NCBI RefSeq assembly: GCF_000226115.1
Contig: NC_016457.1
Coordinates: 5,828,001-5,892,000, forward strand
DNA: 64,000 bases
Reading direction: 5' to 3'
From: Thermothielavioides terrestris NRRL 8126
Lineage: Eukaryota; Ascomycota; Sordariomycetes; Sordariales; Chaetomiaceae
The number at the start of each line of letters is the position of its first letter. Positions within the stretch are counted from its first letter, which is position 1. A program made the translations under genes and the position numbers. Shown here piece after piece: positions 9,277-64,000 of the stretch. The notes under the pieces are model-generated. The model was not told the origin of the DNA. It searched no databases and saw only the letters and a program-made list of their open reading frames with translations.

Positions 9277-12200
9277 AATCTTTATAGCGTTCAACGCCTC
9301 TAGATTCTTCTTCCAGCTTCCTATTATAGAAGAGCACTATAACTATATAGTAGTTATTAGTCCTAAAGGTTTAGAACACTTAAACGTTGTACTAATAGGA
9401 TTCAAAAACTCGCTAGCCTTCGTATAGCGCTTTATAGACCACTTGTTCTATAAATACAAGCATTTTATATATACCTATATCGACGACATTATTATCGCTA
9501 ACAAGAATATAAAGGAGTACCTCAAATACATTGAAACAGTTCTCAACATCCTTAACAAGGTATATATTTATATTTTAGTAGAAAAATCTTTTATAGCCTA
9601 CCCGTCAGTCAGACTTCTTAGCTATATGGTCAACGGTAAAAGAGTAGCTAAGATAAACAATAGAATCGCTATATTTAAGAAACTTAAGTTTCCTAATACC
9701 CTAGAAACCTTAGAGCAATACCTAGATATAGCTAAATAGCTATATAAAGGCATCCTATAGTATATAGCGAAAGCGTAGCCTCTATAGGACTGTAAAACCA
9801 AGTTCCTTACCTAAGGGAGAGTAAATAAAGACCTTCCTATCGCTAAGTCAAAGAACGCTAGGAAGATATTCACCTCGAACGTTAAATTTAAGCCTATACT
9901 AGCGGAACTAAAGTCTTTTAAGTTGCTATAGGAACACCTATATAAGTAGTACTTCCTATATTATCATTGCCCTAACAAGCTATTGTTTATTAAACTCGAT
10001 ATAAACGACAAAGAATATAGAGCAATCGTCTTTTAACTCTATAGCAAGTAGAATAGCACTAATATCCCTAGCTAAGACATTCTAAACAACGAGATCTAAC
10101 CTATTATATTCCTCTCCTATCTAACCTTCAACGTAGAAAGGAAGTATAGAAGTATAGAAGTAAAAGTCGCTACTATCGTTTAGGCAGTCAGAAAGCTCTA
10201 AAAAATAGTATAGTCAAACTAATATCCTATAAACATCTTAACAGACTATATAGCGACTAAAGGCATTGTAAAGTATATATCTCTCGCTACTATAGACCTT
10301 ACGAAAGCTAATCTAAAGCTCGCCAACGCTATAAACTAGCTATCCTAGTTCGACTTTAACATTTTCTATATACTAGGAAAGCTCAACGTTATACTAAACG
10401 CCTTATTACGCCTATCGACCTTCGAAGAAGATGCCCCTAACAAAGCCTAAAACGACATTAACGAACTAGAGGACATTTAGTCTACTATCTAGATCAATAC
10501 TAAAAAATACTATACTATAGACATTAGTACCTTCGAGCTAGTTATCAATAACGAGTTTAAGGCTAAGCTAACTATAGCTTATTCTAACGACTGCTAATAT
10601 AACAAGATCATTAGGAGTTTCTATAACGTAGAGGAACAAGCTAAGAAGATCGCTAAGTAGAAAGAATACAAAGAGCGAGAAGGAGAGCTATATAAAAGGC
10701 AGTATTAAAAACTATAGATTAGGCCCTATAAACTAAAGGACAATCTCCTTTACTACGTCGACTATAAAGGAATAAAGAAGCTTTATATCTCTAGCAACTA
10801 TATTAAAGACATTTTTACCGTTATATATAACAATATTTACTACTTCGGTATAGACAATATAATAGCGAACTTCTTAATATTCGCTTTTAACTAAAAGCGC
10901 TAGATAATATATAAATATATTTAGCACTACCCTATATATAAAGAGAACTAGACTTTGAAAGAGCTAAAGCCTAGAGACCTTTAGCCAATTTGGACATTGC
11001 TATAGCCTTTCTATACTATCACTATAGATTTCATTATCGGTTTACCCACTATACCCTCTAAAGGGACACTATAGTCAACGAAGAAGTACCTAATCCTCAA
11101 CGCTATATATACTATAACCTATAAGTTTAGTAAGAAAAAGCTTCTTATAGTTAGAAACGATAAGATATTAGTAAAGGAATAGGCGATTATAATCCTTAAA
11201 GCGCTAACGTATATAGATTAGGGACTCTCAATGTAAATCATTAGCAATTAAGACACTAAGTTCACCTTTGACCTATAGAGGGAAATCTTTTATATCCTAG
11301 GCGTCAACCTTCTTTTCTCGATAGCCCATTATCCCTAGATAGACAGTCAATTAGAAAGGACGAACTAAATAATAGAAATCGCTATCTATATAGAAGCTAT
11401 AGAAAAACTAAAAACGTTATAGCCTCTACTTCTCTCTATATTGTAGTACAACTTTAACAATACGCTTGTAATCACTATTAGAAGGTCGCTAAACGAGTTG
11501 GTATATAGCTTTAAACTACGCTCTATCCTAGATATACTTCACTATAAGAAAGGCACTATTACCTTTACTAAAGCTATCAGTGTCCTTAGACAGTAGTACT
11601 AGGAGGAAGCAATGGAATAGATCGACTATATAGGCGCTATCGCGAAAATACGTTACAACGACAAGTATATGCCTACTAAGTTCAAAGTAGAAGATATCGT
11701 TTACCTACGACTATACAACAGATACTATCTCCTAGGCAAGCCTAAACGAAAGTGGTCACTATAGTAGGCAAGACTATTTAAGATTATTTGTAAAATCAAT
11801 AGGAACGCCTATAAGCTTAACTTCCTAGCTAGATAAAGAGTCTATCCTATAGTTTCCATTTCTCAATTATAGAAACTAGATTAAGAGAAAGACCCCTTTA
11901 GCTATAATATAGAACCCTCTAGCCCTATAATCGTTGATAGAAATAAGCATTAGGAAGTCGAGAAAATTGTATAACGGCGTATTATCTAGAGGAATAGGAG
12001 ACCTAAGGTCGAGTATTAAATTAGGGTGATAGACTACCTAGACATAGGGGGACCTAGTTTTTCTACTTTTCTATTTGTCTTAGAGCGTTGCATTCGTTGT
12101 TAAGGGGTCTAGCCCTCTAATTATATATATTTAAGTAGGCTAAGCCTATCTTCTTTATCATTAAGCAAGACATCAAATAGTTGTTAATATACGTTCGTTG

Positions 12201-12772
12201 ACACTATGTTGGTGGTCCTCCTTCTTCTAGGAAGGCTATTGAGCCTCTCCTTTCGTTGTTCTACCTCTGTCTAGACGGTGGGTATTCGAGCTATTGAGCT
12301 CTGACCACATTCTTATTGTCTTTTGTCTTTCTGTTGTATCCTACTAGACGTACCTGAGCTACGTGTCTTCCTCTTAGGAGACATCCTTTCTACTACTCGA
12401 TATACATTATCTTTATCCGTCCAGAGGTACACTGCATTCCTTTAGGAGCTATCTCGTATACCTAATCCTGGGTGTAGTAGGGTAGGTTGGTGTAGAGGTT
12501 TTACACCATTTTAGTATCTAGTATAGTGGAAGGGGTATATCGCTAAGGACAACTAGTAGATTATATATATTTAGCTTATTAACGATACTAGAGAGCTAGT
12601 TAAAGAATATAAGAAAGTATATCCTATTGACTAGGAGAAAGAACACTATAATAAAGGCATCGCTATTAAGGAATAGGAAAAAGTGACGAAGATTCCTCGA
12701 TCCTAGAACCAAATTGTCGTAGAGCTACTATAAAGGAAGGGTAGCGACCAATAACAGCTATACTATTATTAA
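9277..12772 (+). pseudogene. Gypsy pol relic (family P copy 2), chromodomain split by a solo LTR
   Basis: Same polyprotein as 1-3267, beginning inside RT. The RT active site is intact as YIDD near 9476-9487 (open stretch 9443-9739), followed by RNase H and integrase. The chromodomain is interrupted between 12016 and 12514 by a 497-base LTR flanked by GTAT on each side. LTR plus duplicated GTAT adds 501 bases, so the downstream part remains in the upstream frame, ending at TAA 12770-12772. Many in-frame TAG and TAA codons make it a pseudogene. Confidence 0.78.
12017..12513 (+). repeat. Solo LTR of family U, target duplication GTAT
   Basis: 497-base LTR (TAAATTAGGG to ACCATTTTA) flanked by GTAT at 12013-12016 and 12514-12517. 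The uninterrupted site is visible in family P copy 1 (cgaGTATctag near 3008-3017). No internal sequence remains, so this is a recombined solo LTR. The terminal bases read TA...TA rather than TG...CA, as RIP of TG and CA would give. Confidence 0.85.
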
Positions 12773-15552: not shown

Positions 15553-15770
15553 ACAAGTATATTATAATGAAGGACATTACTATAGGATAAGATAATAGGT
15601 ATAAAAGTTATATATAGAGTATAATATAGATTAGTTTTCTTTCCTTTCTATACACTCCCTTATCCTATACTAAGTTCTATAATAATAGTGAGAATACCAT
15701 CTTTTCTTCTTATTCCTAGGCACTTGTTATATATAACTATAGCAAGGGCACCTATAACTGCACTACGGTC

Positions 15771-15963: not shown

Positions 15964-15972
15964 ACGTATAAC

Positions 15973-38026: not shown

Positions 38027-38513
38027 TGAAATAGTGCAAAACCTCTACACTAACCTACCCTACCACACCTAGGACCAAGTATACGAGATAGCTCCCAAAG
38101 GAATATAGTGTCCCTCTAGACGAATAAAGATAGTATATATCGAGTAGTAGGAAGGATATCTTCTAAAAGGAAGATATATAGCTCAAGTACATCTAGTAGG
38201 ATATAATAGAAAGACAAAAGACAATAAGAATACGGTCAAAGCTCAATAGCTCAAATACCTATTGTCTAAACAAAAGTAGAACAACGAAAGGAGAGGCTTA
38301 ATAGCCCTTCTAAAAGAAAGAGAACTACCAACGTAGTGTCAACGAACATATATTGACAACTACTTAATATCTTACTTAATAATAAAGAAGATAAGCTTAG
38401 CCTATTTAAATATATATAATTAGAGGGCTAGACCCCCTAATAACGAATATAATATACTAAAACGAATAGAAAAACTAGGTCCCTATATCTAAGTAGTCTA
38501 TTACCCTAATTTA
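38027..38513 (-). repeat. Family U 3' LTR of the outer element
   Basis: 487 bases, TGAAATAGTGC...CCCTAATTTA on the + strand, matching the two LTRs of element A. The adjacent internal bases CACTTCCTTTTC are the complement of a polypurine tract, which fixes this as the 3' LTR of a minus-strand element. Confidence 0.85.
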
Positions 38514-38523
38514 CACTTCCTTT

Positions 38524-40840
38524 TCAAACTTACTATACACTTCTATAGGCAAGCTTATACTTTAAAAGCTCCCTAGTATACACCTCTTATCGTTGCTACT
38601 CTTTAAGTTGCTCTCTATATATAGCTCTTTTAGCTTATAAAGGCCTAGCTAGCTATAGTAGCTAATTACACCATCTTTTATACTCCTCTACTTCCTTGAT
38701 ATATACGTTCTATCCTTACTACTATACTAGATACTTATACTTATAGGCAAAGGCATGATCGTATAGGTTGTATAGTAGCGAGCAAAGTAGCTATTTAGGC
38801 TTAGTAAGCTCTTTACAAAGGCGTTTACTACAGTACTACACTAAGGGTAACATATAGCCAAATAATATAGGCGATCCTTATACTTATAAATACTTCTATA
38901 CTAGCGAATAAAGTATCTTAAGATAGTTTAGCCTCCTTATAAGTATATAGACAAGCGTCTTCTCTTTCTAAAGATAGGGATCAAGTACTATTATCCTAAA
39001 TACCGCCTATACTAGAGCCCTAAGCTTTTTGACCTATATACTACTAAGGAGGTACTCCTAGTCGAACTTGTCTATAGGGGCGTCAACGAGCCTTTAAATC
39101 GTAGCCGCCTATATTGTAGCGATCTCTATAATCTTAGCTTTAACGTTCGTCTAAGTCGATATATTGTTAAGATCCTCTATCAATGTAGCCAATAGTTCTA
39201 AAGTAGTATTCTAGTCCTCTAGTCGAAATAATAGAATAGCTTTAGATGCTAAAAACGTAGTCTATAACTATTGTCTAAAGTCGTCTACAAAGTCTTATAA
39301 AGATAGCCTACTACTTAGCTATCTATCTAATAGAAGCTTTGCGATCCTATAATAATACGCCTAGTACGCTACCTCTTACTTTAATTAAAGTATAAGGACT
39401 AGCTATACAATAGTAATTAGTCCCTTCTTACTTCGGTCAAGGATCTAGGCTTACTTAAATACTACTAAGTATATAACTAAGATTCTAAGTTCTATATCGC
39501 TAAAGTGGTTATAGATATATATAGATAGGTCGTTGAGCTTAGAAATATCTAGCTTATTAAACGTAAATATATTATCTCCTTAAAGGACTTTAATCACCTC
39601 GTCTTCGTTGTACTCTAAGAGTATAGGCTATATAGGTTCTTAGATCGAAGACAATAGATCTAGAGAGAGCTTATATATCTTACCTTTATTCTACTATAAT
39701 AAAGGGATTCCTTTAACGTAAAGTAGGCAATCTTTAAAGGTACTAAAAGCATTCCTATAAGCTCCTAACTATAAGTATAATATATACTATCGTATAACCT
39801 TCTTACTATCTCTCTAATATAGTTGGAGCTAGAGTATCTTAAATTATATTAGTCTATCTAAAAGGTAGGGCTAGAGCTTTTAAAGAAAAGCCTATATAAA
39901 CTCTAAGACGAACTATCTATACTTCTAACTTATACCTTACTAAGGACAATAGACAATCACCTCCTTATATAGCTACAACTAAAGGAACCTATAGATAGAC
40001 TAGAAGGCGATCCGAACCTCTAATAAGATATTAGCGTATATCTCTATACTCTTAAGTATAGAGTCGAAGTAGTAAAGCTAACCTATAACTTAGTTGAAGA
40101 TTGTAATAGCCCAATGCCTTCCATTGACAAAGTAAAGAAAGACCTAGAAACGATAATGGTTAGCAATGACCTTCTAGTTAGATCGGTAGAACTCCTTTAG
40201 TATAGGACTAATATCCGAGATAGGCTATAGGTAGAACTAGAGACAATCCTTATAAAGACGAAAGAAAAACTATATAACGTCTAGGATTATCTAGCTCTCT
40301 AGCTATTCCTTAGTAAATAGTATACCTTCTATATCAAAGAGTAAAACACCTATATCTATAAAACTAATCTCGAAAAACTGATCTATTATATACTTTCCCT
40401 CTAGCTAGCTTAAAAATAGGTAGCTTATAATCTTAAGATTCGTATTAAGTCGAAGGCTCTAAATTCAATTAGGCTACTAGTTGATTATATTTTATAAGTA
40501 CTTCTTTAGGGTCTATAGAAATAGAAAAAGCTTAGAACTAGTCTCTCTAAGGTAACTTAGCATCTTTAAATCTAGCTCTTGCCCTATAAAGAAAGTATAA
40601 TACCTCGCTTAATCGCTATCTCCTATAGGCCTTTATAAACCTAATGATATATAAAACTTAAACTCTCTAAGCAGCTACTTCTATTCTAGGGCAATAGTTA
40701 TATTAGCCTAAGATTATATAAGCCTTACGAAATCGAGAATCCTATAATGACCTATAGTAATATTTGCAATAGCGTATAAAAATTTAGTTTAATAGAAAAG
40801 TCGCTCTCTAAGTAGAAAGATCTAGACTAATTAAAGTGAT
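38524..40840 (-). pseudogene. Ulp1/C48-type cysteine-protease-like ORF relic (outer family U element)
   Basis: About 770 codons ending at TGA (38526-38524), just before the polypurine tract. The catalytic His-Trp is intact (CAT TGG, 40116-40111: GRHWAITIF), followed by the Asp in LYYFDS and a Gln-rich C-P-Q/stop stretch. The Cys-Gly position again reads TAT AGA. His codon and terminal stop are in one frame, so there is no net indel, unlike the copy at 6475-8789. The C-terminal half (KEVEEYKR...) is shared with element A and the left copy. Ulp1 enzymes cleave SUMO or related tags; a Ulp1-like domain is known in some DNA transposons, but what it does in this retroelement is unknown. In-frame TAG/TAA codons show it is dead. 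Confidence 0.65.
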
Positions 40841-41189
40841 TATAAAAAAATCTAAAGTGTAGTAGACAAGGCGAAAGAAATGGTTAATCGTAAGAAAGCT
40901 AGCGAGAGGATTAAAAAAAGGGGTAGACAAGCCTTTAAAGGTAGAAGAGCTATTTAGCTCTTTCCTAATCTAGGCGAAAGAAAAACGGATAAAGCCTATA
41001 GCACCTACTAATTAGCTAGAGATAGGCTAGAAAAGAGTATCCGCCTCCTAAATTCTTAAGGCCTTCCTCTCCTCTTTACTATCCTAGAACTATTTCCTTC
41101 CTCTAACCTTTTTACTATCTTATTCTAGTGCCTTTATCTCTCTAGGCAAATTAGGTTCTTAGTAGTCGGGTCTTCTACTTCTCTTTCGA

Positions 41190-42387
41190 ATTCGTATATA
41201 GCTCCTATATATAAATTTATAACCTAAAACCTAAGATATCGAACAACTAACGTACCTACAACGTCTTATAGGAAATCACTAATAAAGTAGACAACTAAAG
41301 GCTATTGTTATATAAAATTATAAACTACTAGATCGATCTTTTACTAATACCGAAAATAAATATTTTTATAACCTAGAAGTATATCTAGGTAATCTAGAGC
41401 AAGATAAAGGATCTACCAATACCAAAAGATAAGTACTATACTAACGAGTATACTACGATCTTAGTTGAATATAAGGCTATCTACAATATAATTAAGATCT
41501 TCCGACTAAACGTTAGGCTACTATATATCTAGTAGGTCTTGCTAAGTAACTAGCAAGATCAATATAGAATATAGCGATTAGTTTATATCGACGATAAGCT
41601 AGTCGATGTGATTGAACAGTACTATGACACCTTAGTTCTTTGTCCAACGTATATAGAGCACTACAATAGTAGACCACTTAAACGTTAGATATACTATCTC
41701 GCTATACGCCTAAACTAAGCTTCGGCTCTCTTAATCTAGGTATAGGGTTATAAGTAAATACTATACTTCCCTTTTATACTTGCTCTCTAGACAAAGGAAG
41801 ACTAATACTTCTATAGTAACAAAGTTCTTTATTAAAGCTATAAACTATTATACCAACGTTCAACAACTCTTTTTAGCGAAGACAGAGATATCTATATAAC
41901 CTAGCTCTTCAATAGCTACGCTTCTCTCACTTCTCTCTTTACTAATAAGTATACTAACTATATCTAATCGAAAAAAGAATATATCTAGACTTATATCTAT
42001 AAGAATAATTAGAAGCACCTAGCTTAGGACTTAATCTTATAGAGCTATCTCCTATACGATCTAAAGAATAATCCTAGGTTGAAGCTATACCTAAAAGAAG
42101 TAGACTAAAAGTAGTTTATCTCGCTAAAGGATATTATTAAAGAACAGATAGTATAGTATTAGGTTAACTATAAGAGTTTACGCTACTAAAGGACAAAGAC
42201 AATAGACAAAGATAGGCAAAGAGTAAGATATAGTCTAGGAGCTTAGCCTATAAACAGTAAATTAAAAGACTATATACCCTAATTATAGATTTTTCTTAGC
42301 CTTGACTTTAGCTCTAAGAAACTTAGTCCTATATAATAGAAACTATCTATCTAGAGGGCAGAAGTGAAAAGAAAAAGGTATAAATGA
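41190..42387 (+). pseudogene. Possible antisense ORF between integrase and Ulp1-like ORF
   Basis: On the strand opposite to the element's other genes a frame of about 390 codons can be read to TGA 42385-42387. Its interruptions are nearly all TAG with some TAA, as Gln or Trp codons after RIP, and the residues between them have balanced charge (e.g. RLVYIDDKLVDVIEQYYDTL). The opposite strand reads less like protein. However, TAG is common everywhere here, and the stop density is not clearly below chance. No domain recognised. Confidence 0.3.
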
Positions 42388-42699
42388 CTATAAAGCTCCT
42401 AAAAGTAAGATCACCCCCTAAGAGGAAAACTTAGATACTAGCGAAAAAGAATAAGGTCTTAAAGACTAAAAATGAACAAAGGACAATAGATAGACGAAGA
42501 CTAAATAAGATATAGCTAATAGAGATATTATTAGTGAATAGGAGGCTAATATAACAATAGGTTTTAAGAAGGAAATATAGCTAAACGCTAGTGAAACTAT
42601 TGGAGGTAGTAGCTTCTATACCCTCCTCCCCTTCTAGAACGTATATCTCTATACGTCTAGAGGGCTAATGTTAAAAGCTAAATAGCTTTCTATAAGGGA

Positions 42700-45522
42700 T
42701 TTCAACAATAAGCTTCTAACGAGGTCGCTCCTTCTTTACCCCCTTCGCAATCGAGTAAGTCTAGCTAGCCTAAAGCGCTATAATATAACTAAGGGTTTCT
42801 TCCTTAAAGACCTTCTCCTTAACTATAATCGTAGCGTCCTCTATACCGTCCTTTCTTAGTACTCTATCGTCGTAATCACTTATACTATAGACCTTATTGT
42901 AATCTAGAACTATAATATTATTATAGAGAAACCTATTTAGGTAATTGGTATAGCTACCTAGGCTAGTAAAGATATAGGCGTAGTCCCCCTTTGCCTAGTT
43001 GAAGCTAGTACTGTCGATAACACTGTATTCCCCTTCGCTATCGTCGGCGAACGTCGAGTAATATATATTTATAGAATCTCGCTCTCTATCACTATAGCCC
43101 TTGCTACCAACCTTGTCGTAGTGCCTACTATTATAGCGCTCCTCTCTACAATAGAACAGGGTCGGTCTATCCACTTCTAGCTAGACGTTATCTAGCTTAA
43201 AGAATTTCTTTATATAGTTTAGAGGATATAACGTCTAGATAGGTATATCGTCCAAAGTCTCTAAAAAGTAAATGTCCTAATCTTTAATTATCTAAATATA
43301 GAATAGGCTGAACCAACGATACTTCAACTTCTAAACTAAGTTTATATTTAGCTAGTATATATTGTTGTAGACGAGGACAAGATTATCGATAGATATAACT
43401 ATATTTTTAAAGCGAAATTTACATTTATAGGCCTTATTATAGTGTTTAACTATCTTTTTATAAGCTATAGCAACCTGTTTAGTAGTAATCTTATAATTAT
43501 ACTCTACTTTCTAGAGGATATAGGTATAGAGGGCAATAAACTTTGTATAAACCTTTATAAAATCTTTTTCCTCTAACTAGGTATAGATAAAGTCCTAAGT
43601 AAGAATTCGCTATATAGGAACATTAAACTCGACTAGACTAATAGGCTTATAATTGTAGGTAAGAAAGAAAGGAGACATTCTATAAAAACCTCTAATAGTC
43701 GTATAATCTATATATAAGATATATAAAAGGAGCTCCCTCTACCTTTTTCTTATACTATTAATCATCTTTGTAAATAAGGTAATAATTAGGATATAGCTAG
43801 CTTTATTTATACCATTTATATATAAATTGTATAGTAAAATAATAACTCTTTTAATACCTAGCTTATATAGGATCTCTTTAACTTCGCCTTTGAACTTAAA
43901 GCCTTCGTTAACAACTATAACTATAGGGTAACCCTAGCGACAAAGGATATACTATAAGATAAAGGACTTAATAGACTTAAAGAACTTATTTAATAGGATC
44001 TTAGCTTCGATATATTCTATAAGATTATTGTAAACCTCGATAAAGAAACACTTCTTCTCTCTATAGCTAAACAATATATATTGGATATCAAAGTGCTATT
44101 TAGCAAAAGGAAAAGGTGGAGACGTTATCTAACCTACTACTTCCTTGAACCTCTAAGTATTATACATTTAATATAGGGCGTAAGCCTAAATCTAGTTTGC
44201 TATATCTTTGTATATACTACGCTAATAATAGTAGTTCGTTACTCGTCGATATATCGACTCCCTTCTACAATAGCCAACCTTATTATAACACTAGTCGAAG
44301 ATTAAACGCCTCTCCTTAAGGGTATCAACAATGTATTTATAACACTATATATAATTTGTACTTTAGAGAAAAAGGTAATGATCTTCGATAAAGTACTTTA
44401 ACGCTTCCCTTTTAAGCTAACGTCGCTTCTAGTATAGACTATAGCTAGATAGAGCTTCTATTGTCAATAGAAAGTAGACGATATCCTAGGAACACTAGGA
44501 GTAACTATCCTAAAGGCGGACAAGTTCTAGCTTCCCCTCTAGATACAAAGTCTCTTTACTTATATAGTTAATAAAGATTTAGACGTTAACCTAATCGTCG
44601 ATATCCTTCTCTAACTCCTTCTCTATATAATTAGAGGGCCTAGGCAGCTTATAAGACAATATATTAGCTACAACGTTTTTAGAACCTAGGATATATTTAA
44701 CTTCGAAGTTGAATAAACGAATCTAGGTAATCTAATATATTATAAGAGTACCTAGAACATTGCTTATAGCACTATTAAGCTAATAGACTAGAACTAGAGT
44801 ATCGGTCTCTATAATGAAATATATATTAAAAAAGTAATAGCGAAAACGCTTTAGAAGGAAGAGTAGCCCCTTTAGCTCCCTCTTTATAGTATTATACCAC
44901 TTCTCTGCCTTTGACTAGATACCGCTCTTAAACCTATATAGGTATCTCTTACTATTGGGACTAACCTACTTAAGTACACCTCTCTAGCTAAGGATACTAG
45001 CGTTGTAAACTAAGAAGATTATATTATATCGTAGATCGCTATAGACGAGCGTCGTAAAGACTAAAGCAATAGTGATTTTCTCCTTTAGCTCGTCTATCAC
45101 CTTTTATTTAATAGGCCCCTAAGTTTATTTAATATCCTTCTTTATTAGAGTATAAAAAGGAATTATAATAATTGTAAAGCCTTTAATCTAGATCTAGTAG
45201 TATCCAACTATTCCAACGAAAATATATACCTCCTTTATATTAGAATAGGTCTTCTACTCTCTTATCTTAATCACCTTCACTTCTTTAGAAAGGCGCCTAT
45301 TAAGTATATAAAAATAACTAAGTAGAACCACTTTTGGCTATATCTACTTTGACTTCACTATAGCGATAGTTATATCTACTAGCTCTACGTTTAGCAACAC
45401 TATATCAATGTTCTTAAGATACTTAACAATAAATTTGTAACATCCCCCTTTGTCTAAACGGCTATTATAATTAGATTAAGGACCTTTCACTATAATATCG
45501 TCTAGGTAAACTCAATAAATAT
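42700..45522 (-). pseudogene. Gypsy integrase, RNase H and RT C-terminal relic (outer element)
   Basis: Reading leftward from 45522: the RT active site YLDD (45508-45497, intact here), the RT tail and RNase H ending with the LGSKNVVANILSYKLPRPSN-type linker near 44640, an integrase zinc-binding region near 44200-44450, the DDE core near 43800-44100 (VVNEGFKFKGEVKE), and a C-terminal ELDGTPLQ-like segment near 43220. No chromodomain follows, so this is a different Gypsy clade from families P and B. TAG/TAA codons throughout. Element A inserted 25 bases beyond the YLDD codons. Confidence 0.7.
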
Positions 45523-46010
45523 TGAAATAGTGCAAAACCTCTATACCAACCTACCCTACTACACCTAGGACTAAGCGCACGAGATAGCTCCTAGAAGAAT
45601 ATAGTATCCCTCTAGATAGATGAAGATAGTGTATATCGAGTAGTAGGAAGGATGTCTTCTAAAAGGAAGATATATAGCTTAGATACATCTAGTAGAATAT
45701 AATAGAAAAGATAGAAGACAACGAGAATACGGTTAGAGCTCAATAGCTCGAATGCCTATCGTCTAGATAGAGGTAAGACAATAAAAGGAGAGGCTTAATA
45801 GCCTTCCTAGAAGAAGGAGAACTACCAACGTAGTGTTAATAAATATATATTGACAACTGCTTAATATCTTACTTAATAACAAAGAAAATAGGCTTAGCCT
45901 ACTTAAATATATATAATTAGAGGGCTAGACCCCCTAGCAACGAATATAATGTACTAAAATAAATAGAAAAACTAGGTCTCTATATCTAAGTAGTCTATTA
46001 CCCTAATTTA
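45523..46010 (-). repeat. Element A 3' LTR
   Basis: 488 bases, TGAAATAGTGC to CCCTAATTTA on +. Followed by CACTTCCCTTTT, the complement of the polypurine tract. Confidence 0.85.
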
Positions 46011-46020
46011 CACTTCCCTT

Positions 46021-47345
46021 TTAAGCTTACTATACGCTTCTATAGGCAAGCTTATACCTTAAAAGCTCCCTAGCGTATACCTTTTATCGTCGCTACTCCT
46101 TTAGCTACTCTCTATATATAGCTCTCTTAGCTCGTAAAGGTCTAGCTAGCTATAGTAGTTGATTATACCGTCTTTTATACTCCTCTACTTCCTTAATATA
46201 TATATCCTATCTTTGCTACTACGCTAGATACTTATACTTATAGACGAAGGTATAGTCGTATAGGTCGTACAGTAGTAGGCGAAGTAGCTACTTAGGCTTA
46301 GTAAGCTCTTTATAAAGGCGTTTACTATAGTACTATACTAAGGGTAATATATAGCCAAATAACGTAGGCGAACCCCAAGCCTATAAATATTTCTATACTA
46401 GCGAGTAAAGCATCTTAAGGTAGTTCAGCCTCCTTATAAACGTATAGATAAGCGTTTTCTCCTCCTAGAGGTAAGGATCGAGTACTATTATCCGGAGTAC
46501 CGCCTATGCCAAGGCCCTAAGCTTTTTAACCTACGTACTACCAAGGAGGTACTCCTAGTCGAATTTATCTATAGGGGCGTCGACAAGTCTTTGAGTCATA
46601 GTCGCCTATATCGCAACGATCTCTATAATCTTAGCCTCAACGTTTACCTAGGTCGATATATTGTTAAGATCCTCCGCTAGTGTAGCTAATAGTCCTAAAG
46701 TAGCATTCTAGTCCTCTAGTTAGAGCAGCGGAATAGCTCTAGGTACTAAAAACGTAGTCTACAACTATCGTCCAAGGTTAGCTACAAGGTCTTATAAAGA
46801 TAGCCCACTACTTAGCTATCCGTCTAATAGAAGCTCTATAATCCTATAGTAGTATACCTAGTATACTACCTCTTACTTTAATTAGAGTATAAGGATTAGC
46901 TATATAGTAGTGATTAGTCCCTTCTTACTCTAGTTAGGGATCTAGGCTTACTTAAATGCTACTAAGTATATAGCTAAGGTCCTAAGTTCTATATTGCTAA
47001 AGTGGTTATAGATATATATAGGTAGGTCGTCGAGCCTAGGAATATCTAGCTCATTAGGTATAAATACATTGTTGCCTTAGAGGGCTTCAATCACCTCGTC
47101 TTCGTCGTACTCCGAGAATATAGGCTATATAGGTTCTTAGGTCGGAGATAGCAGGTCTAGAGGAAGCTTATACGTCTTGCCTTTATTCCACTATAGCAAA
47201 GGGATTCCTTTAGTGCGGAGTAGGCAATCCTTAAAGGTGCTAAGAGCATTTCTATAAGCTCCTAACCACAAGTATAATATACGCCGTTATACAACCTTCT
47301 CACTGTCTCCCTAATACGGTCGGAGCTAGGGCATCTTGAATTGTA
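46021..47345 (-). pseudogene. C-terminal part of the Ulp1-like ORF in element A
   Basis: Homologous to 38524-39850, ending at TAA 46023-46021. The Ulp1 catalytic residues are not included because the upstream part was deleted. It shows that the ORF lies between LTRs with a proven target duplication. Confidence 0.7.
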
Positions 47346-50300
47346 TTAGTCCGTCTAGAAGGCGGACAGGTTCTAGCTTCTCCTTCGGATATAAAGTCTC
47401 TTCGCCTATATAGTTAACAAAGATTTAGGCATCGACCTAGTCGTCGATATCCTCCTCCAACTCCTTCTCTATATAGTTAGAGGGCCTAGGCGGCTTGTAG
47501 GACAACGCGTTGGCTACAACGTTTTTAAGACCTAGGATATACTTAACTTCGAAGTCGAATAGATAGATCTAGGCAATCTAGCGTATTATAAGAGTACCTA
47601 AAACATCGCTTATAGTACCATTGAGCTAATAGACTAGAACCAGAGTATTAGTCTCTATAGTAAAATATATACTAAAGAGGTAGTAGCGAAAACGCTTTAG
47701 GAAGAAGAGTAGCCCCCTTAGCTCCCTCTTCGTAGTATTATACCGCTTCTCTACCTTTGACTAGATACCGCTCTTAAACTTATATAGGTATCTCTTACTA
47801 TTAGGACTAACCTACTCGAGTACACCTCCCTAGCCGAGGATACTAGCGTTGTAAACTAGAAAGATTATACTATACTATAGATCGCTATAGACGAGCGTCG
47901 TAAAAACTAGAGTAGTAGTAATTTTCTCCTTTAGCTGGTCTATCGCTTTCTACTTAGTAGGCCCCTAAGTCCACTTAATATCCTTCTTTATTAGAGTATA
48001 AAGAGGAATCGCGATAATCGTAAAGCCCTTAATCTAGATCTAGTAGTATCTAACTATTCTAACGAAGGTATATACCTCCTTAACGTTAGAATAGGTCTTC
48101 TACTCCTTTATCTTAACTACCTTTACTTTCTTAGGAAGGTACCTATTAGGTATATAAAGATAACTAAGTAGGACCGCTTTTAGCTACATCTACTTCGACT
48201 TTACTATAGCGATAGTCGTATCTACTAGCTCTACGTTTAGTAATACTATATCGATATTCTTAAGATACTTAATAATAAATTTACGACGTCTCCCTCTATC
48301 TAAATGGCTATTATAATTAGATCGAGGACCTTTTACTATAATATTGTCTAGGTAGATTTAATAGATATCTAGGATAAAATTACTAAAGATTATCGTTATA
48401 GCCTATTAAAACTAGGCAATAGAATTTATACCTCTTATCGATAGCGTATATATATAGAAGAGACTAATTAGCGTTGAAAAGGTCGTTAAATTATAGCTCC
48501 GTTTATCGAGATTAACCTAGTTATAACTAGAGAAGAGATCTAGGAGAGACATTAGCTTATAGCTACCAAAGTCTTTACTAAATTCTTCTATAGTAGGTGG
48601 GACAAAAGCGTCGTAGATCGTTATAGTATTAGCCTTTTAAGCATTATTAATAAGCTACAATCTACTATCCGTCTTAAAAACAAAGAACTAGTTATTACAA
48701 TAGCTTATATAGCTATATTTGATAATCCTATATATTTGCCTCTCTCTAAGTAGATCAATAACCTTTTATATTAATAGCTTTGGAATTAGAATAGACTTAC
48801 TCTACTAGGCCTTATATAGGATAGTCTTAATATACTAGGGCAGGACAATATCTTTATAAATACGTCTATACTTAGTGAAATCCTATATAAACGTAGCTTC
48901 CTAGTTTTATAAAATTTTAGCGAACATCTCCTTTTCTAGCTTATTAAGGAATCTATCTATAGTAGTGAGTATCGTTTAAAAGTGCTCCTTAGTAAGCTTT
49001 AAGCCTAGCTTAAGATCTAAGAAACAAAGGACTATAAAATCGTCCTATTCCTTTTTAAACTATATCTTTACTTTAGCCTTAATAAACCACTTTTCTTACT
49101 ATAACGAATCTCCCTCTAGTATAGAGCTATTTAATAGTACTAAATCGACTAGTCGAACTTTATTTATAATATTCTTTTAAAGTATAAACGTCTTTAAAGT
49201 ATATTTAACCTTATACTTGAATCCCTACTTTAGCCTCTAGCTAGAAAAGGGGTTTCCAACTAAGGTCCCCCTCTTCCCTTTTAAATAGGACAACAATTCG
49301 ATCTTTGTCTATTTAGATAGAGAAGATAAAGAATAAGAATATATAATATAAAAAAGAGTATTAAAGAGCAGTATATAGAACTTCTATAAAATAAAATAAA
49401 AAACCATTTTACCTATATTATCGTCGAGGAAACTAAGAGTAGTCTCACCTTCCTCTATCTTTACCTAGTCAAAGATTCTTTTAGGACTCTTCGTTAATCC
49501 CTAGAATTGCTTCTAGATAGCTAATTACGTTAGAGATAGTAGGCGATTCCGCTAAGTAATCTTCTTAGAGACGATATATATTTAGACTATCTTTCCTTTT
49601 ATAAATAGATTAACAGTAATTAGGTTGTTATTATAGTAATTGAAGGTTAGAGCAATATCTTTAACAAATAGTATACTAAGGATTACTTTGTATCTACTAG
49701 CAGTGTCCTTAGTTATAAAGAAGTGAAGGTTAATACTAACTCTACCTAGGTAAAGAGTAACCTAGGTCTCTCTAATAAATAGTACTAAGCTATAAAGGCC
49801 TTTTGAAATGACCTTAGTAGGCTAATATAGTAGTGTATACTTCTTAACAACGTTTATCGAAATATAGTTGCACTCTAAACTAAAGTCAATTAAGGCAAGA
49901 TACTTATTATAATAACCCTTCTTAAACTAGATATATAGAGTAGGAAGCGACTATATTTTTATTATTATACCGAGTTCTATATACTATAAAACTAAAAGCA
50001 TTAAGATAGACTTCTAGAGTAGGGTATAGATATAATTGTCAACGTCTCTAGGTAGACCCTTATAAATCTAATGTTCTTAGAGGCTTCCTATATAGATGCC
50101 CTATACACCGTCCTTAGTAACTCTAAAGATCGCTAGAACCGTCTTAGTCTAGCTAGAGCAAAGACTATTAAGTATATTTATATTAGTATATAGAGCCTAT
50201 ATATAAACTCTTATATCTTTTAGTATAATAGCTAGTCCATTAAGCTTAGGAACACTAGACCCTTTATAGTTGATAACCTCGATATTAGTAGAAATGCCTT

Positions 50301-52450
50301 ATAGATATATAATTAGAGCGTTCTTATACTTAGGTAAGATATAGACTAAGTCGTCAAAGGTTAGATTAGTCTTCGCTTTCATTATAGTATAGATTATATC
50401 CTTTATATACAAAGGCAATATAGTAACCTTTAGTATAGACGGCTTAGACTATAGCTCCTCTTTCTTTGTACAATTCACTATAGCTAGGTTCTTAAGGATA
50501 GTTATATAAGAAGGCTCCGCTAGAGATATAGAAGTACCGCCTATTAGGAAGTTATCTTCCCTTTCGTCCTTAGTGAACCGACGTTTAGTAGGCAGTATAC
50601 CTTAAAGTATAGTCTCCACCTCCTTGTTCGCTTCCTCTTTAGCTTCCCCCTTAGTCTAGTTAGAGAGAGGAAGAGGTAGCTAACGGAATTTGTTAGCCTT
50701 TAGTATAGGCTATAGGACAACCTTCTAAGTTAAGATACGACCTCCCTCTAATAGGACTATATAAAACGACAACTAATTAGACGCTATATAATAGAAGGTA
50801 GAGGTAAGCTTAGGCTCCCTTTTATATATAAGACGATTAATCGTTGTCTAGATAGTCGTAGACTCCTAATATAGCTTAGGCTACTAGAGGTAATACTTGT
50901 TTAGTACTAGGGATATATCTAGCTTAAACGGACAACTATTTAGGCGCTTATACTTACAATAGTACGCCTAGTATATAGGATAACTGTTATACTATAGGCA
51001 ATAGGCTATATATATAAGGACGAGCTAGCTGATCTTACTAACCTCTTATATACTATTAACATCTGCCTTTGTAAAGGTAATTATCTTAGCTAGCGTATAG
51101 CCCTTCTTACTCCTATCGCTAAAGCAGTAGTCTATACCCTTATAATATATTAGACCTATAGCTATAGCTTTTATAGCTTCTATATACTTAAGGACTATAT
51201 AGTCAAAGTCACTATAATAGTAGCAATAGCTAAAGCTTATAGGTCTACTATAGCTAGGAGGACGACTATCAATATATAAGCCAATGACAAAGCTAATATA
51301 TCTCTCCTATAAGCGGCTCCGCTACTAGAAATACGTCTAGAGAACCTTAATCTCGTTAGGAGTAGGATCAATTTCATATAAACGAAGGGCCTTAATCTTC
51401 TACTCGAACTGCTTAACGATCTTCTACTTCTAGATATATAGACGCTAGAGCTAATTAGCTAGATCGTCGATATCGTTGAACGTAGGTATAAGAGCTTTCT
51501 TTAGCTCCTCCTCTTCCTACTTCTATAGCTTAAGAGTCGTCTTAATAGTAGGTATAGCTAGAGGCAAATAATACTTCTATAGATTAATCTTACATTTATA
51601 GGTCTTAAGAAAGAGGTCTCCTACGTTGAGACCCTTTTAAAGAGTATCCTAAACGAACTTAAGGAAGTCTATCTACTTTATAGTACGAATAGAGTCCTTG
51701 TTATCCTTCTTCAGAGTATACTAACGGTCCTTAAGAGCTACTTAGATCTGCTAATTAAGTGTACGCTATATAGTTAGAACAATTATATACTATAGCTCTT
51801 TATAAACTTTAGTAGAGGCGACAACGTATATATAGTCGATCAACTCAAAGTAGTTGTAAATAACCGTATTAACTAGCTAGTATCTCTCTTCGATTAGATT
51901 ATAAAGGTAACTTCTATTACTATACTATTTAAGATTATCGCCTTTCCAACGTTTTAGGAACTTAGCCTTAAAAGCTACCTAGGTCTCTTAGTCCTTTTTC
52001 TCCTAATGACGAATAATAAGCTAGATCGTAGTATTATATTAAAGCTTAAATAGATATATATAGGTCTTATTATTAGTAACCTAATAAGCTTTATACATCT
52101 TCTCGAAGGTCTTGATCTATTGTATAGCATTCTAACCAAAGAAGTAGCCCTAAAGGCTAGCCTTCGCTAAGGTCGGAAAGGTCGTACTAAGCGTAGTAGC
52201 AAGGATATACTTAGTCATCTTCTTTAGAGCTTCGGCTTTAGAAAGACTAGAAGGTATTACCGTAGGTACCTCTATATAGATAGACGGAGTAGAGGTATCT
52301 AGCGAAGACGGAAGGGGTGTCTATACCGCTTTAGCTAGGTCTTCTTTGCTTAGTATACCTTAGAAAGGCTATAAGATAGATATATCCTTAGACTCTCCTT
52401 TAGAGGTTAGTATTAGGATTAATAGTGTTACAAAGGTTAATAGGATTCTT
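47346..52450 (-). pseudogene. Gag-protease-RT-RNase H relic of element A
   Basis: Reading from right to left: a gag-like frame (about 52450-51000; includes MTKYILA at 52218 and VAFKAKFLKRWKG), a Cys-containing region near 50950-51000 where a zinc knuckle would be, an aspartic protease with D-F-S for D-S-G at 49887-49879, RT with FVFKTDSRLRLINNA-type and YLDN (48354-48343, the second Asp changed to Asn) motifs, and RNase H to 47346. The part 48523-51175 aligns with 61348-64000 at a constant offset of 12825 with no net indel. All frames contain RIP-type stops. Confidence 0.7.
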
Positions 52451-53344
52451 AGAGCTTCTATAGACAGTGTATATATATATTGCTAGAGCCTAGTTATTAG
52501 GCATTTGGCTATTGTCTTTGAGAAAGGCAACGACTATATTAATAGACTATAAAAAGACTAATATATACACTTCTATAGGAACATTGATTCCTTCGACGTC
52601 TATCTAGAGGAAGAAAACCTCTTAAGAAGCTAGGTTCCTTTGGAATATATAGTCTAAAGGCCCTAAAGGATAACTATAGGTTCCTTATAGATTACCTAGA
52701 TACCTTTAGTAACTAATATACTAAACTCAACTAGTATAATAGCGGTAAGAGTATAGCTCTTAAGAAGAAAAGCAAAAGTCTATACTAAGACCTTATATCC
52801 AATATAAAACAGTGCTAGATATACTATTAGAAGGAGCTAAGTATCGTAAAAGTGTAGCCCTAAGCTTAGAAGCTCGTAAATAGCTATTATACTTAACTAC
52901 TTTTATAATTAGTTTGGCTAGACCGGAGAAGAAAATGATAATCAATGAAAATTCTGCCTTTGTCTCTACTTAGGAGGATAGAATTACCGTCTTTCGATTA
53001 GATTAGCGTTTTACAATCGCTACATTGATAATAACAAAGCCTTAATAGATCTTCGAAGTATTAGGGATAATAAGATATCTTTTTAATGCCCTACGCCATC
53101 TAGGCAAAGGAAGGTCTCCTAGGACAAGGTCTCAATAGACCCCTAGAACGTATACGCCTCAATAGGTTTCTATACCTCTTAGAAATACTGGTATTGGTAT
53201 ACTAGAGCCTTAACAGGTTAGCTATATCGTCGTTGTATAGCTATTAATATAGTATCGTATAGTTTTATAATCTTAGAAGACTTTATAGTCTATACTATCT
53301 CGTTTAGATATAGAGCTAAGCTCCTCCCTAATTAAGCCCCTATT
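52451..53344 (-). other. 5' leader of element A
   Basis: About 890 bases between gag and the 5' LTR. Next to the LTR, in element orientation, the sequence is AATAGGGGCTTAATTAGG, where the tRNA primer-binding site should be; RIP has obscured it and I cannot name the tRNA. Confidence 0.4.
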
Positions 53345-53832
53345 TGAAATAGTATAAAACCTCTATACCAACCTACCCTACTATACCTAGGACTAGGCGT
53401 ACAAGATAGCTCCTAGAGAAATGTAGTATCCCTCTAGACAAATAAAGATAGTATATATCAAATAGTAGGAAGGATATCTCCTAAGAGGAAGATATATAGC
53501 TTAGATATATCTAGTAGGATATAGTAGAAAAGATAGAAGACAACGAGAATACAGTTGAAGCTTAATAGTTTAAATGCCTATTGTCTAGATAGAGGTAGGA
53601 CAATAAAAGGAGAGGCTTAATAGCCTTCTTAGAAGAAGGAGAACTACTAACGTAGTGTCAACGAACGTATATTGACAACTACTTGATATCTTGCTTAATG
53701 ACAAAGAAGATAGGCTTAGCCTACTTAAATATATATAATTAGAGGGCTAGACCCCCTAGCAACGAATATAATATACTAAAACGAATAGAAAAACTAGGTC
53801 CCTATATCTAGGCAGTCTATCACCCTAATTTA
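53345..53832 (-). repeat. Element A 5' LTR
   Basis: 488 bases, TGAAATAGTATAAAACC to CCCTAATTTA, followed by target duplication ATAT and outer-element RT. Confidence 0.85.
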
Positions 53833-53836
53833 ATAT

Positions 53837-53995
53837 TTAGGATAAAGTTACTAAAGATCGTTGTTATAGCCTACTAGAACTAGGCAATGGAATTTATATC
53901 TCCTATCGATAGTATATATATATAGAAGAGACCGATCGACGTTGAAAAGGTCGTTAAATTGCAATTCTACTTATTAAGATTAACCTAGTTGTAAC
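53837..53995 (-). pseudogene. Fragment of outer-element RT between elements A and B
   Basis: 159 bases matching the RT region 48364-48527 of element A; the outer element's coding sequence between the two insertions. It ends in GTAAC, the duplicated target of element B. Confidence 0.7.
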
Positions 53996-54386
53996 TGTCA
54001 CGGCAAGGCAAAACAAGTGCTGGATGACTCGTAGCTGAATTAATCCTCGATTGACGAAGACTTTAAGTCTGAGGAGAGAGAGGAAAACTATCAATATATA
54101 GGTAGAAAACTGTGCTCAAATACCTTAGGTAGTATATATAGACAATTTGTAGTAGGGCTACAATTTACAGTAGGGCTACAAAGTCTATATATTGCAGGGT
54201 AAGACGCGGTTCGCCTTATCAGTGCGTTTTTCCTTATCGGTAAGTTAACCCCTCCTTCCTAATCCAGAAGTCGACTCGAATCCTATAAATCCACCAACTT
54301 AGGAGGTTATATAAGTGTATAGTTATATCACAGGTCTGTATACGAGTTATATAACAGTGGTCAATGTACTATACCGTTATATCACC
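53996..54386 (-). repeat. Element B 3' LTR
   Basis: 391 bases beginning TGTCACGGCAAGG. More A/T-shifted than its partner at 60962-61347, especially in the last 100 bases. Confidence 0.85.
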
Positions 54387-54599
54387 CCCCCCTCGAAAAA
54401 GCGTTGTGCCTATACGACGGATACGTTGCAGTCCTCTACTAGCTATTGGTAATCAGAAGAGTTGGCTCGCAAGCCTATTTTTTACGAAGTTTATACAATT
54501 GAGTTCTGTAGGACTCGGAAATCTGCCCTATAGCCTGCTAGGCTATATAAGATACTATATCTAGGCCGGTAGGTATACGAGGGAGCTAGGATGAAATGT

Positions 54600-60653: not shown

Positions 60654-60961
60654 GTCGGTATTATACCTCTTTTAAGACTTCTTTTGTCGATCGATATAGT
60701 TGAATCGCCTCGACGAGGTAATTGTACTACTTGCCGCTAGTCGATCAGAGGTTACTTCGCTATCGGCAACCTATTATATACTTAACGGTTTATCCTTAGT
60801 ACCAATTGGTTCCTAGCTAATCTGTTGTACTGTACTGTCGGTAAGTCGAAGGTTCTATCGGAGATTCGGGTTCCCTAACCAACTAAACTAGTCCTATTGG
60901 GAAAGACTATATTGGATATTATATCGCCTTCGTAGGCCTATAGTAGTGAGACTTGAAGTAA

Positions 60962-61347: not shown

Positions 61348-61352
61348 GTAAC

Positions 61353-64000
61353 TAGAGAAGAGATCTAGGAGAGACATTGGCTTATAGCCACTAAAGTCCT
61401 TACTAAATTCTTCTATAGTAAGCGAGATAAAAGTATTATAAATTGTTATAGCATTGGCCTTTTAAATATTATTAATAAACTATAATCTACTATCCTTCTT
61501 AAAAACAAAGAACTAGTTATTACAATAGTTTATATAGCTATACTTAATAATTCTATATATCTACCTCTCTCTAAATAGATCAATGACCTTCTATATCAAT
61601 AGCTTTAAAATTAGAATAGACTTACTCTACTAAGCTTTATATAGAATAGTCTTAATATACTAAGGTAGGACAATATCCTTATAGATATATCTATACTTAG
61701 TAAAATCTTATATAAACGTAGCCTCCTAGTTTTATAAAATCTTAGCGAATATCTCCTTTTCTAGCTTATTGAGAAATCTATCTATAGTAATAAATATCGT
61801 TTAAAGACGCTCCTTAGTAAGCTTTGAGCCTAGCTTAAGATCTAAGAAATAGAGGACTATAAAATCGTCCTATTTCTTTTTAAACTATATCTTCGCCTTA
61901 GCCTTTGTAAGCCGCTTTTCTTATTACAATGAGTCTCCCTTCAATGTAGAGCTATCTAATAGAGCTAAATCAACTAGTTAAACCTTGTTTATAATATTCT
62001 TTTAGAGTATAAACGTCTTTAAGGTATATCTAACCTTATACTCGAATTCCTATCTTAGTCTCTAGTTAGAAAAGAAGTTTCCAACTAAGGTCCCTCTTTT
62101 CCCTTTTAAATAGGATAATAATTCGATCTTCGTCTATTTAAACAAAGAAGATAAAAAATAAAAATATACAATGTAAAAAAAAGTGTTAAAGAGTAGTATA
62201 TAAGACTTCTATAAAACAAAATGAAAAACCACTTTATCTATATTATCGTCGAGGAAACTAAAGGCAATCTCACCTTCCTTTATCTCTATCTAGTTAAAGA
62301 TTCTTTCGAGACTCTTTGTTAATCTTTAGAATTGCTTCTAAATAGCTAGTTACATTAGAGATAGTAGGCGATTCTATTAGACAATCTTCTTAGAGACAAT
62401 ATATATCTAGACTATCTTTCCCTCTATAAGTAAATTAACAATGATTAGGTTGCTATTATAGTAGTCAAAGGTTAAAGCGATATCCTTGACGAATAGTATA
62501 CTAAGAATTGCTTTGTACCTACTAGCGATATCCTTAGTTATAAAGAAGTAAAGGTTAATACCAACTCTACCTAGATAAAGAGTGACCTAGGTCTCTTTAA
62601 GGAATAGTACTAAACTATAAAGACCTTTTAAAACGACCTTAGTAGGCTAGTATAGTAATATATACTTCTTAATAACGCTTATTAAAATATAGTTATACTC
62701 TAAACCAAAGTCGATTAAAGCGAGATACTTATTATAATAACCTTTCTCGAACTAGATATATAGAGTAGAAAGCGACTATACTCTTATTATTATACTAAGT
62801 TCTATATACTATAAGACTAAAAGCATTAAGATAGACTTTTAGAGTAAAGTACAAATATAATCGTCAACGTCTCTAGGTAGACCCTTATAAATCTAACGCT
62901 TCTAGAGGCTTCCTATATAAATACCCTATATACTATCCTTAGTAACTTCGAAGATCGCTAAAACTATCTTAGTCTAATTAGAGCAAGGACTATTAAATAT
63001 ATTTATATTGGTATATAGAGCTTATATATAGACCCTTATATCTTTTAGTATAGTAGCTAGTCTATTAAGCTTAGGAACACTAGACCCTTTGTAGTTGATA
63101 ACCTCGATATTAGCGGAAATACTCTATAGATATATAATCAAAGTGTCCTTATACTTAGGCGAGATATAGACTAAGTCGTTAAAAGTTAGACTAGTCTTCG
63201 CCTTTATTACAATATAGATTATATCCTTTATATATAAAGGCAATGTAGCAACCTTCGATATAGGCGGCTTAGACTATAGTTCCTCTTTCTTTATATAATT
63301 CACTATAGCTAGGTTCTTAAGGATAGTTATATAAAGAGGCTTTGCTAGAGATATAAGAGTACTACCTATCTAAAAGTTATTTTCTCTTTTATCTTTAGCG
63401 AACCGACGCTTAGTAGACAATGTACTTTAAAGTATAGTCTCTACTTCTTTATCCACTTCCTCTTTAGCTTCCCTCTTAGTCTAGTTAAAGAGAGGAAAAA
63501 GTAGTCGACGAAATTTATTAGCCTTTAGTATAGACTATAGGACAATCTTCTAAGTTAAGATATAACCTCCTTCTAATAAAACTATATAAAACGATAACTA
63601 ATTAAACGCTATATAATAGAAGGCGGAAGTAAGCTTAAGCTCCCCTTTATATATAAGACGATTGATCGTTGTCTAGATAGTCGTAGGCTCCTAATATAGC
63701 TTAGGCTACTAAAGGTAGTACTTATTTAGTACTAGGGATATATCTAGCTTGAATAGACAGCTATTTAAACGCTTATACTTATAATAGTACACTTAGTATA
63801 TAAGATAACTGTTATATTGTAGGCAATAGGCTACGTATATAAGGACGAGCTAGCCAATCTTATTAACCTCTTGTATACTATTAATATCTACCTTTATAAA
63901 GGTAATCGTCTCGACTAGTGCATAGCCCTTTTTACTCCTATCGTTAAGGCAATAGTCTATACTCTTATAATATATTAGACCTATAGCTATAGCTTTTATA
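61353..64000 (-). pseudogene. RT, protease and gag relic of the outer family U element
   Basis: Continuation of the outer element to the right of element B, colinear with 48528-51175 at a fixed offset. RT N-terminal part, aspartic protease region (near 62710) and start of the gag/knuckle region. RIP-type stops; continues beyond the window. Confidence 0.68.

What the first reader, a model, noticed from the sequence alone, without database searches (positions are those of the whole stretch)
38027..47345. An approximately 13-kb Gypsy-type retroelement (family U) that carries a Ulp1-like protease ORF next to its 3' LTR
Seen: a frame with His-Trp, Asp, Gln and a Cys-Gly position in Ulp1 order lies between integrase and the polypurine tract/LTR. 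The Ulp1-ORF/LTR association occurs three times (6475-9272, 38027-40840, 45523-47345), once between two LTRs with an ATAT target duplication. Known: Ulp1/C48 domains occur in some DNA transposons (e.g. Mutator-like in plants). I do not know of an established Gypsy lineage with one. Inference: a captured de-SUMOylation or processing activity that became part of the element, perhaps to counter SUMO-linked silencing or to process element proteins.
Basis: partly seen in the sequence, partly recalled or inferred. Interest (0 to 1): 0.85.

Follow-up and report, generated by a model that had tools for sequence, protein, structure and literature searches.

The report
Fungal Gypsy retroelement carrying Ulp1-like protease
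A 13-kb fungal retrotransposon family, now wrecked by the fungus's own mutation defence, carried an extra gene that looks like a SUMO-cutting (Ulp1-type) protease, which it may have used to loosen host control.

Summary
The observation largely holds. The window carries copies of a 13-kb Ty3/Gypsy LTR element (family U); two full copies elsewhere measure 12,966 and 13,051 bp, with LTRs and 4-bp target duplications. The copies examined are heavily RIP-mutated. Between integrase and the polypurine tract lies a second ORF whose degraded frame fits the Ulp1/C48 core. Under a RIP-aware likelihood this site is the best in the AT-rich window parts and in 34 of 34 genome loci scanned. Catalytic residues are still literal in some distinct copies: His 17 of 35, Asp 30 of 35, Gln 20 of 37, Cys 1 of 37. 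Of 40 integrase places scored, 35 have this ORF in line downstream.

Corrections: the third 'occurrence' (45523-47345) lacks the catalytic domain through an internal deletion, and it is the ATAT-flanked copy.

RIP-blind searches (Pfam, PDB, protein database, profile-profile) did not reach C48; no intact relative was found. Constraint between subfamilies shows in the ORF's C-terminal part, not in the C48 core. Function is inferred: most likely a deSUMOylase, less likely a maturation protease. In the open-licence papers searched I saw no LTR element with a C48 ORF.

The parts
38027..38513 (-). 3' LTR of U1
   Evidence: repeat comparison and boundaries; PPT-like purine run beside it
38600..40800 (-). 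ORF2 of U1 (approximate limits), separate frame from gag-pol, many RIP-type stops
   Evidence: RIP-aware coding measure about 40720-38900 with dips; only a 9-bp shared indel between subfamilies in this stretch
39889..40317 (-). C48-like core of U1: His codon 40116-40114, Asp 40065-40063, Gln 39939-39937, Cys position 39921-39919
   Evidence: four-block RIP likelihood 28.6 bits; controls; residue counts
42450..45522 (-). 3' part of the gag-pol frame of U1 (RNase H 45016-44774, H2C2-like 44317-44189)
   Evidence: Pfam, coding measure
45523..46010 (-). 3' LTR of U2
46011..47362 (-). C-terminal part of ORF2 in U2, catalytic core absent; deletion junction at about 47359-47365
47359..53344 (-). 5' internal part of U2 (gag to RNase H; RNase H about 47958-47623)
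   Evidence: colinear with full copies, Pfam RT_RNaseH 35.9 bits
53345..53832 (-). 5' LTR of U2; ATAT duplication at 45519-45522 and 53833-53836
53833..53995 (-). U1 continued beyond the U2 insertion
   Evidence: colinear with full copies
61348..64000 (-). U1 continued beyond the W insertion; leaves the window (an LTR match lies at C1:5894170-5894650)
   Evidence: LTR place
6476..8776 (+). ORF2 and 3' end of copy A (subfamily 3), cut at 6476 by another Gypsy element
6982..7410 (+). C48-like core of copy A: His codon 7183-7185, Asp 7234-7236, Gln 7360-7362, Cys position 7378-7380
   Evidence: 27.4 bits
8777..9272 (+). 3' LTR of copy A
12017..12516 (+). LTR of family U alone, inside another Gypsy element

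Best explanation
Family U is a Ty3/Gypsy LTR retrotransposon of about 13 kb: LTR, one long gag-PR-RT-RH-INT frame, a spacer, a second sense-strand ORF of roughly 700 codons with a Ulp1/C48-like cysteine protease core, PPT, LTR. SHOWN HERE: the LTR plan, Gypsy-type RNase H and weaker integrase signal, the regular place of ORF2, and that ORF2's degraded frame fits the C48 core with the catalytic spacing. INFERRED: before RIP ruined the copies, ORF2 made an active protease that took SUMO (or a related modifier) off host or element proteins and so eased SUMO-dependent repression of the element. It was made apart from gag-pol and was not the main maturation protease.
For: C48 core best in the AT-rich window parts and in 34 of 34 loci; permutation 1 of 500; holds for RIP rates 0.5-0.95. 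Literal residues in distinct copies: His 17/35, Trp 9/35, Asp 30/35, Ser 35/35, Gln 20/37, Cys 1/37, Phe 37/37; the departures seen (Tyr, stop, Asn, stop, Tyr, and Arg for Gly) are of RIP type. ORF2 follows integrase in 35 of 40 places at 2.7-4.2 kb and at 7.8-10.3 kb in 3 more. LTR pairs of three copies differ by transitions only. An aspartic-protease-like motif tops the gag-pol frame at the same element position in 3 of 3 copies (recalled pattern). In yeast, loss of SUMO conjugation raises Ty1 RNA, and the Nup84 complex restrains Ty1, Ty2 and Ty3 (PMC8585004, abstract and passages).
Against: Pfam, PDB, protein-database and profile searches that ignore RIP do not find C48; a cruder score did not single the site out. 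Without RIP in the model the margin vanishes: 20.8 bits against 19.7 in V and 18.5 for reversed blocks. The Gly after Cys is literal in 0 of 37 and Cys in 1 of 37. Transversions between subfamilies show no third-position excess in the core (5 of 17) or just after it (4 of 19). The coding measure dips over the Gln/Cys part. No intact relative was found; activity and substrate are untested.
Confidence: 0.55

Rival explanations
1. ORF2 is a maturation protease: like the adenovirus and Polinton cysteine proteases (same clan, recalled), it cut Gag or Pol during particle assembly.
For: Same catalytic order; the element's own proteins are its nearest substrates. The aspartic motif in gag-pol is short and found with a recalled pattern only.
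Against: The aspartic-protease-like motif is the best PR site of the gag-pol frame at element position 3933-3941 in 3 of 3 copies.
Confidence: 0.15
2. ORF2 is a passive passenger: a C48 gene picked up once, carried along and not needed.
For: No sign of codon-position constraint in the C48 core. C48 genes also occur in Mutator, Ginger1 and Crypton elements (PMC2836005, PMC3212892, passages), so donors exist.
Against: Kept in three subfamilies; between them the only indel shared in the ORF2 stretch is 9 bp (copy A has one base more). C-terminal part: 21 of 34 transversions at third positions, p 0.0006. In line with pol in 35 of 40 places.
Confidence: 0.12
3. The C48 likeness is chance: the RIP-tolerant reading fits four loose blocks to an AT-rich ORF of another kind.
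For: RIP-blind searches are negative; one of 500 permutations reached the score; the cruder score failed to separate; integrase of V scores 16.5-19.5 with RIP in the model.
Against: Blind scan ranks the two window copies first and second, far from the rest (28.6 and 27.4 against 17.5). W scores at most 7.0 and gag-pol at most 17.6 with RIP in the model. Literal HW, DS and Q stand at family spacing in several copies.
Confidence: 0.1

Closest known systems
Ty3/Gypsy LTR retrotransposons (Metaviridae)
   Same: LTRs with TG...CA ends, 4-bp duplications, PPT-like run, RNase H before H2C2-type integrase
   Different: about 13 kb, with a C48-like second ORF between pol and the 3' LTR
Ginger1 DNA transposons with Ulp1 (PMC2836005, passages)
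   Same: Gypsy-type integrase together with a Ulp1/C48 domain
   Different: cut-and-paste DNA transposons with terminal inverted repeats; Ulp1 is a C-terminal domain of the transposase; U has LTRs, RNase H and a separate ORF
CryptonF and CryptonS elements with C48 (PMC3212892, passages)
   Same: extra C48 peptidase in a mobile element
   Different: tyrosine-recombinase DNA elements, the C48 cases named being from oomycetes and relatives
Mutator-like elements with Ulp1 (named in PMC2836005, passages)
   Same: Ulp1 carried by a transposon
   Different: DNA transposons
LTR elements with additional ORFs between pol and 3' LTR (PMC7264820, first of three parts read)
   Same: place of the extra ORF
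   Different: env-like or antisense ORFs in the part read; no C48 mentioned there
Host Ulp1-like protease (L012; P0001 and relatives)
   Same: HW, DS and PxQxNGWDCG core with the same Q-C spacing
   Different: 1163 aa, GC-rich, intact; its 695-aa part gave no tblastn match to the window at E 1e-3, though RIP could hide one

Membership tests
Ty3/Gypsy LTR retrotransposon | paired LTRs with TG...CA ends and short target duplication | tested here: met
   C1 copy TTAG, C4 copy ATAT, U2 ATAT
Ty3/Gypsy LTR retrotransposon | RT and RNase H upstream of integrase | tested here: inconclusive
   RT_RNaseH over cut-off in four copies; H2C2 downstream in the same frame but below cut-off and seen in U1 only; RVT_1 not found; YxDD-like site in 3 of 3 with a recalled pattern
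Ty3/Gypsy LTR retrotransposon | primer binding site after the 5' LTR | not tested
   sequence printed but not matched to tRNAs
Peptidase C48 (Ulp1) | Pfam PF02902 over the curated cut-off | tested here: not met
   no hit for frames of the window copies or for 22 copies singly; genome search lists host-type genes only. All copies tested carry RIP damage
Peptidase C48 (Ulp1) | His, Asp, Gln, Cys in order with family spacing | tested here: met
Peptidase C48 (Ulp1) | proteolysis of SUMO or a related modifier | not testable with these tools
   no assay
Ginger1 / Mutator with Ulp1 | DNA transposon with terminal inverted repeats and no RNase H/RT | tested here: not met
   direct LTRs and RNase H present; ORF2 in a frame of its own

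The most novel reading that the evidence does not exclude
ORF2 was a fast-evolving, exchangeable counter-defence module of a Gypsy retroelement, comparable in role to env or an anti-restriction gene: subfamilies with nearly the same LTR (0.4% transversions) carry ORF2 versions that differ by 3.9%, another subfamily is a recombinant inside ORF2, and in the C48 core changes fall on first codon positions more than on third (9 against 5). SUMO would then be a battleground between RIP-bearing fungi and their retroelements.
Probability: 0.25. Interest if true: 0.85.

Novelty: new variant of a known kind. Interest (0 to 1): 0.62.

Why it matters
Ulp1-type proteases recur in unrelated DNA transposons (Mutator, Ginger1, Crypton), which suggests that cutting SUMO helps mobile DNA; how is unknown. 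An LTR retroelement that kept such a gene through several subfamilies would show that the benefit is not tied to DNA transposases. It fits yeast work in which SUMO conjugation restrains Ty elements (PMC8585004, abstract and passages) and offers a testable case in fungi, where RIP makes host control strong.

Tried and rejected
RIP-blind searches failed to see C48: Pfam on stop-masked frames of three window stretches and of 22 copies singly, PDB profile search, protein database with a 22-copy alignment (7997 candidates scored, none at E 0.01) and with residues 130-310 of the window ORF (160 candidates, none at E 10), hhalign of 672 window-frames against a profile of 37 fungal Ulp1 relatives and one host Ulp2-like protein (the site is not among the top rows). 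A whole-profile RIP-tolerant alignment did not separate the frames (59.8, 51.5, 55.2). A first block score that took the best precursor gave ORF2 31.1 and two places in the Gypsy element V 31.5 and 31.0; at higher costs V scored above ORF2, which left the listed rows at the highest cost. I replaced it by the likelihood, after seeing this result, because it rewards ambiguous codons; readers should weigh that order of events.

Rejected ideas: that 268-6476 is U's own 5' part (it is another Gypsy element); that 44513-45522 and 47359-48368 are LTRs of a third family (they are the same piece of U in U1 and U2); that ORF2 is a recent copy of host Ulp1 (no match).

Rows dropped: sites not at least 80% fixed in each group, and subfamily 2 as a recombinant, were left out of the subfamily 1-against-3 counts. 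One search counted three genomic copies twice; one search repeats the counts without them and is the one cited. Of 245, 90, 110, 81 and 88 first-look candidates the tool scored 40 each, so copy numbers are lower bounds. No structure prediction was run. tRNA scan of the window (bacterial code) found none.
Full report
WHERE WE ARE. The window is C1:5828001-5892000 of a 36.9-Mb genome in six contigs. AT-rich blocks with RIP marks (U copies: TpA/ApT 1.67-1.77, (CpA+TpG)/(ApC+GpT) 0.33-0.41) flank a GC-rich block (0.69 and 1.22).

ANATOMY. The LTR of family U is 487-496 bp in the window and begins TGAATTAGGG and ends CTATTTCA in element sense where least changed. Two full copies, 12,966 bp (C1) and 13,051 bp (C4), show that what looks like several families in the window is one element. 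U1 occupies 38027-45522, is broken by U2 (45523-53832), goes on at 53833-53995, is broken again by another Gypsy element W (53996-61347), and goes on at 61348 out of the window. U2 has two LTRs and an ATAT duplication but lacks about 4.6 kb, including the end of pol and the first part of ORF2 with the C48 core. Copy A (6476-9272) is the 3' end of a U of another subfamily, cut where a Gypsy element V abuts.

GYPSY POL. RT_RNaseH is over the Pfam cut-off of 24.8 in the C1 copy, the C4 copy, U2 and U1 (29.2, 36.2, 35.9, 34.0 bits); H2C2 follows in the same frame in U1 only and below its cut-off; RVT_1 was not found. A RIP-aware coding measure favours one sense frame from about element position 1.3 to 8.5 kb, with a dip near 6.5 kb, and a second coding stretch at window 40720-38900 with dips, one of them over the Gln/Cys part of the core; antisense frames reach part of these values. 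In the long frame an aspartic-protease-like motif at element position 3933-3941 and a YxDD-like motif at 5466-5474 are the best sites in 3 of 3 copies, the latter narrowly in the C1 copy (9.6 against 9.5); both patterns are recalled.

THE C48-LIKE ORF. RIP-blind tools see nothing. I therefore scored each copy alone with the likelihood that RIP turned a C48-type codon into the codon seen. The C48 side was four ungapped blocks from host Ulp1-type and Ulp2-like proteins, SENP1, SENP7 and yeast Ulp2. In 336 tile-frames of the AT-rich window parts the two U copies that hold the region come first and second with 28.6 and 27.4 bits; the next independent site has 17.5. In 34 genome loci (the window copy among them) the same place is best of six frames in 34, with 21.4 to 33.0 bits against 2.7 to 15.8 for the runner-up frame. 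All four blocks lie in the window's register in 22; in 10 the second and third blocks are displaced by 10 to 24 codons, in one the first and second, in one the first only. The loci share descent and are not independent. Permuting columns within blocks reached the score once in 500 (mean 10.2, sd 3.7). With RIP rates from 0.5 to 0.95 ORF2 of the window scores 27.0-29.1 and of the C1 copy 24.8-27.3, against 3.8-7.0 in W, 9.7-17.6 in gag-pol and 16.5-19.5 in V; with RIP switched off 20.8 and 19.3, no better than V (19.7) or reversed blocks (18.5). The signal thus depends on allowing for RIP.

RESIDUES. In distinct copies the codons read His 17 of 35 (else Tyr), Trp 9 of 35 (else stop), Asp 30 of 35 (else Asn), Ser 35 of 35, Gln 20 of 37 (else stop), Cys 1 of 37 (else Tyr), Gly 0 of 37 (Arg), Phe 37 of 37. 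Each of these departures is of RIP type. H-to-D spacing (17) equals that of SENP1 (blocks), and P-x-Q-x-x-G-x-[DE]-C-G spacing that of SENP1 and host Ulp1.

IS IT PART OF THE ELEMENT? Of 40 integrase places scored (81 first-look candidates), 35 have ORF2 at 2.7-4.2 kb downstream on the same strand, 3 at 7.8-10.3 kb and 2 none within 20 kb among 72 distinct ORF2 places. Of 40 LTR places, 18 have a scored ORF2 place within 2 kb; the rest were not sorted. LTR pairs of three two-LTR copies differ by 58, 64 and 49 transitions and no transversion in 489, 486 and 485 sites: units inserted whole and were then mutated. A PF02902 search of the genome lists GC-rich host-type genes only (six matches, five over the cut-off).

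SUBFAMILIES. RIP makes transitions, so transversions show older divergence. Subfamilies 1 and 3 differ by fixed transversions at 3.9% of ORF2 sites (86 of 2190), 1.2% of the stretch upstream (14 of 1150) and 0.4% of the LTR (2 of 459). Subfamily 2 matches 1 upstream and 3 downstream of about 39.5-39.9 kb, a recombinant within ORF2. Third positions of the ORF2 frame are favoured in the C-terminal part (21 of 34, p 0.0006) but not in the C48 core (5 of 17) nor just after it (4 of 19); whole ORF 37 of 86 (p 0.04). Constraint is thus shown for the C-terminal part and not for the core. Either ORF2 versions were exchanged between lineages or the gene evolved fast.

MECHANISM. Since gag-pol seems to have its own aspartic protease, ORF2 is more likely to act on modifiers such as SUMO than on Gag-Pol. 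In yeast, loss of Ubc9 or of Siz1 and Siz2 raises Ty1 RNA, and the Nup84 complex, through Ulp1 tethering for Ty1, restrains Ty1, Ty2 and Ty3 (PMC8585004; abstract and passages). An element-made deSUMOylase in the nucleus could have the same effect. This step is inference.

NOVELTY. Ulp1/C48 domains in mobile DNA are known from Mutator, Ginger1 and Crypton elements (PMC2836005, PMC3212892; passages). Searches for Ulp1 or C48 with Gypsy, LTR retrotransposon and fungi listed no paper that, from title and start of abstract, describes an LTR element with one (one search showed 15 of 683). 'LTR Retrotransposons in Fungi' (PMC3248453, passages) and 'Giant Transposons in Eukaryotes' (PMC6431247, passages) do not hold the word Ulp1. 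The library holds open-licence papers only, so the absence is weak evidence.

Noticed in passing
268-6476 and 9272-15984 (plus): Gypsy element V: RNase H over the Pfam cut-off in the first copy, RVT_1 over it in the second, SH3_Tf2-1 below cut-off, then about 3.4 kb more without a Pfam hit; a U LTR (12017-12516) sits alone in the second copy.
   Followed up: partly
53996-61347 (minus): Gypsy element W inserted in U1 with duplication GTAAC; RVT_1 74.8 bits, both RNase H families over cut-off. No C48-like site, so it served as a control.
   Followed up: partly
L012 (C1:6055370) and L013 (C6:2167509): Two places with an identical host Ulp1-like gene and flanks (3549 of 3549 bases), without RIP damage although the genome shows strong RIP; recent duplication or assembly effect.
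   Followed up: no
41170-42350 (minus): Between pol and ORF2 coding potential is weak, yet the 14 fixed transversions avoid one codon phase (6, 8, 0); possibly a small further ORF.
   Followed up: no
about 39500-39900 (minus), loci L034, L035, L040-L046: Subfamily 2 is a recombinant of subfamilies 1 and 3 with its breakpoint inside ORF2.
   Followed up: partly
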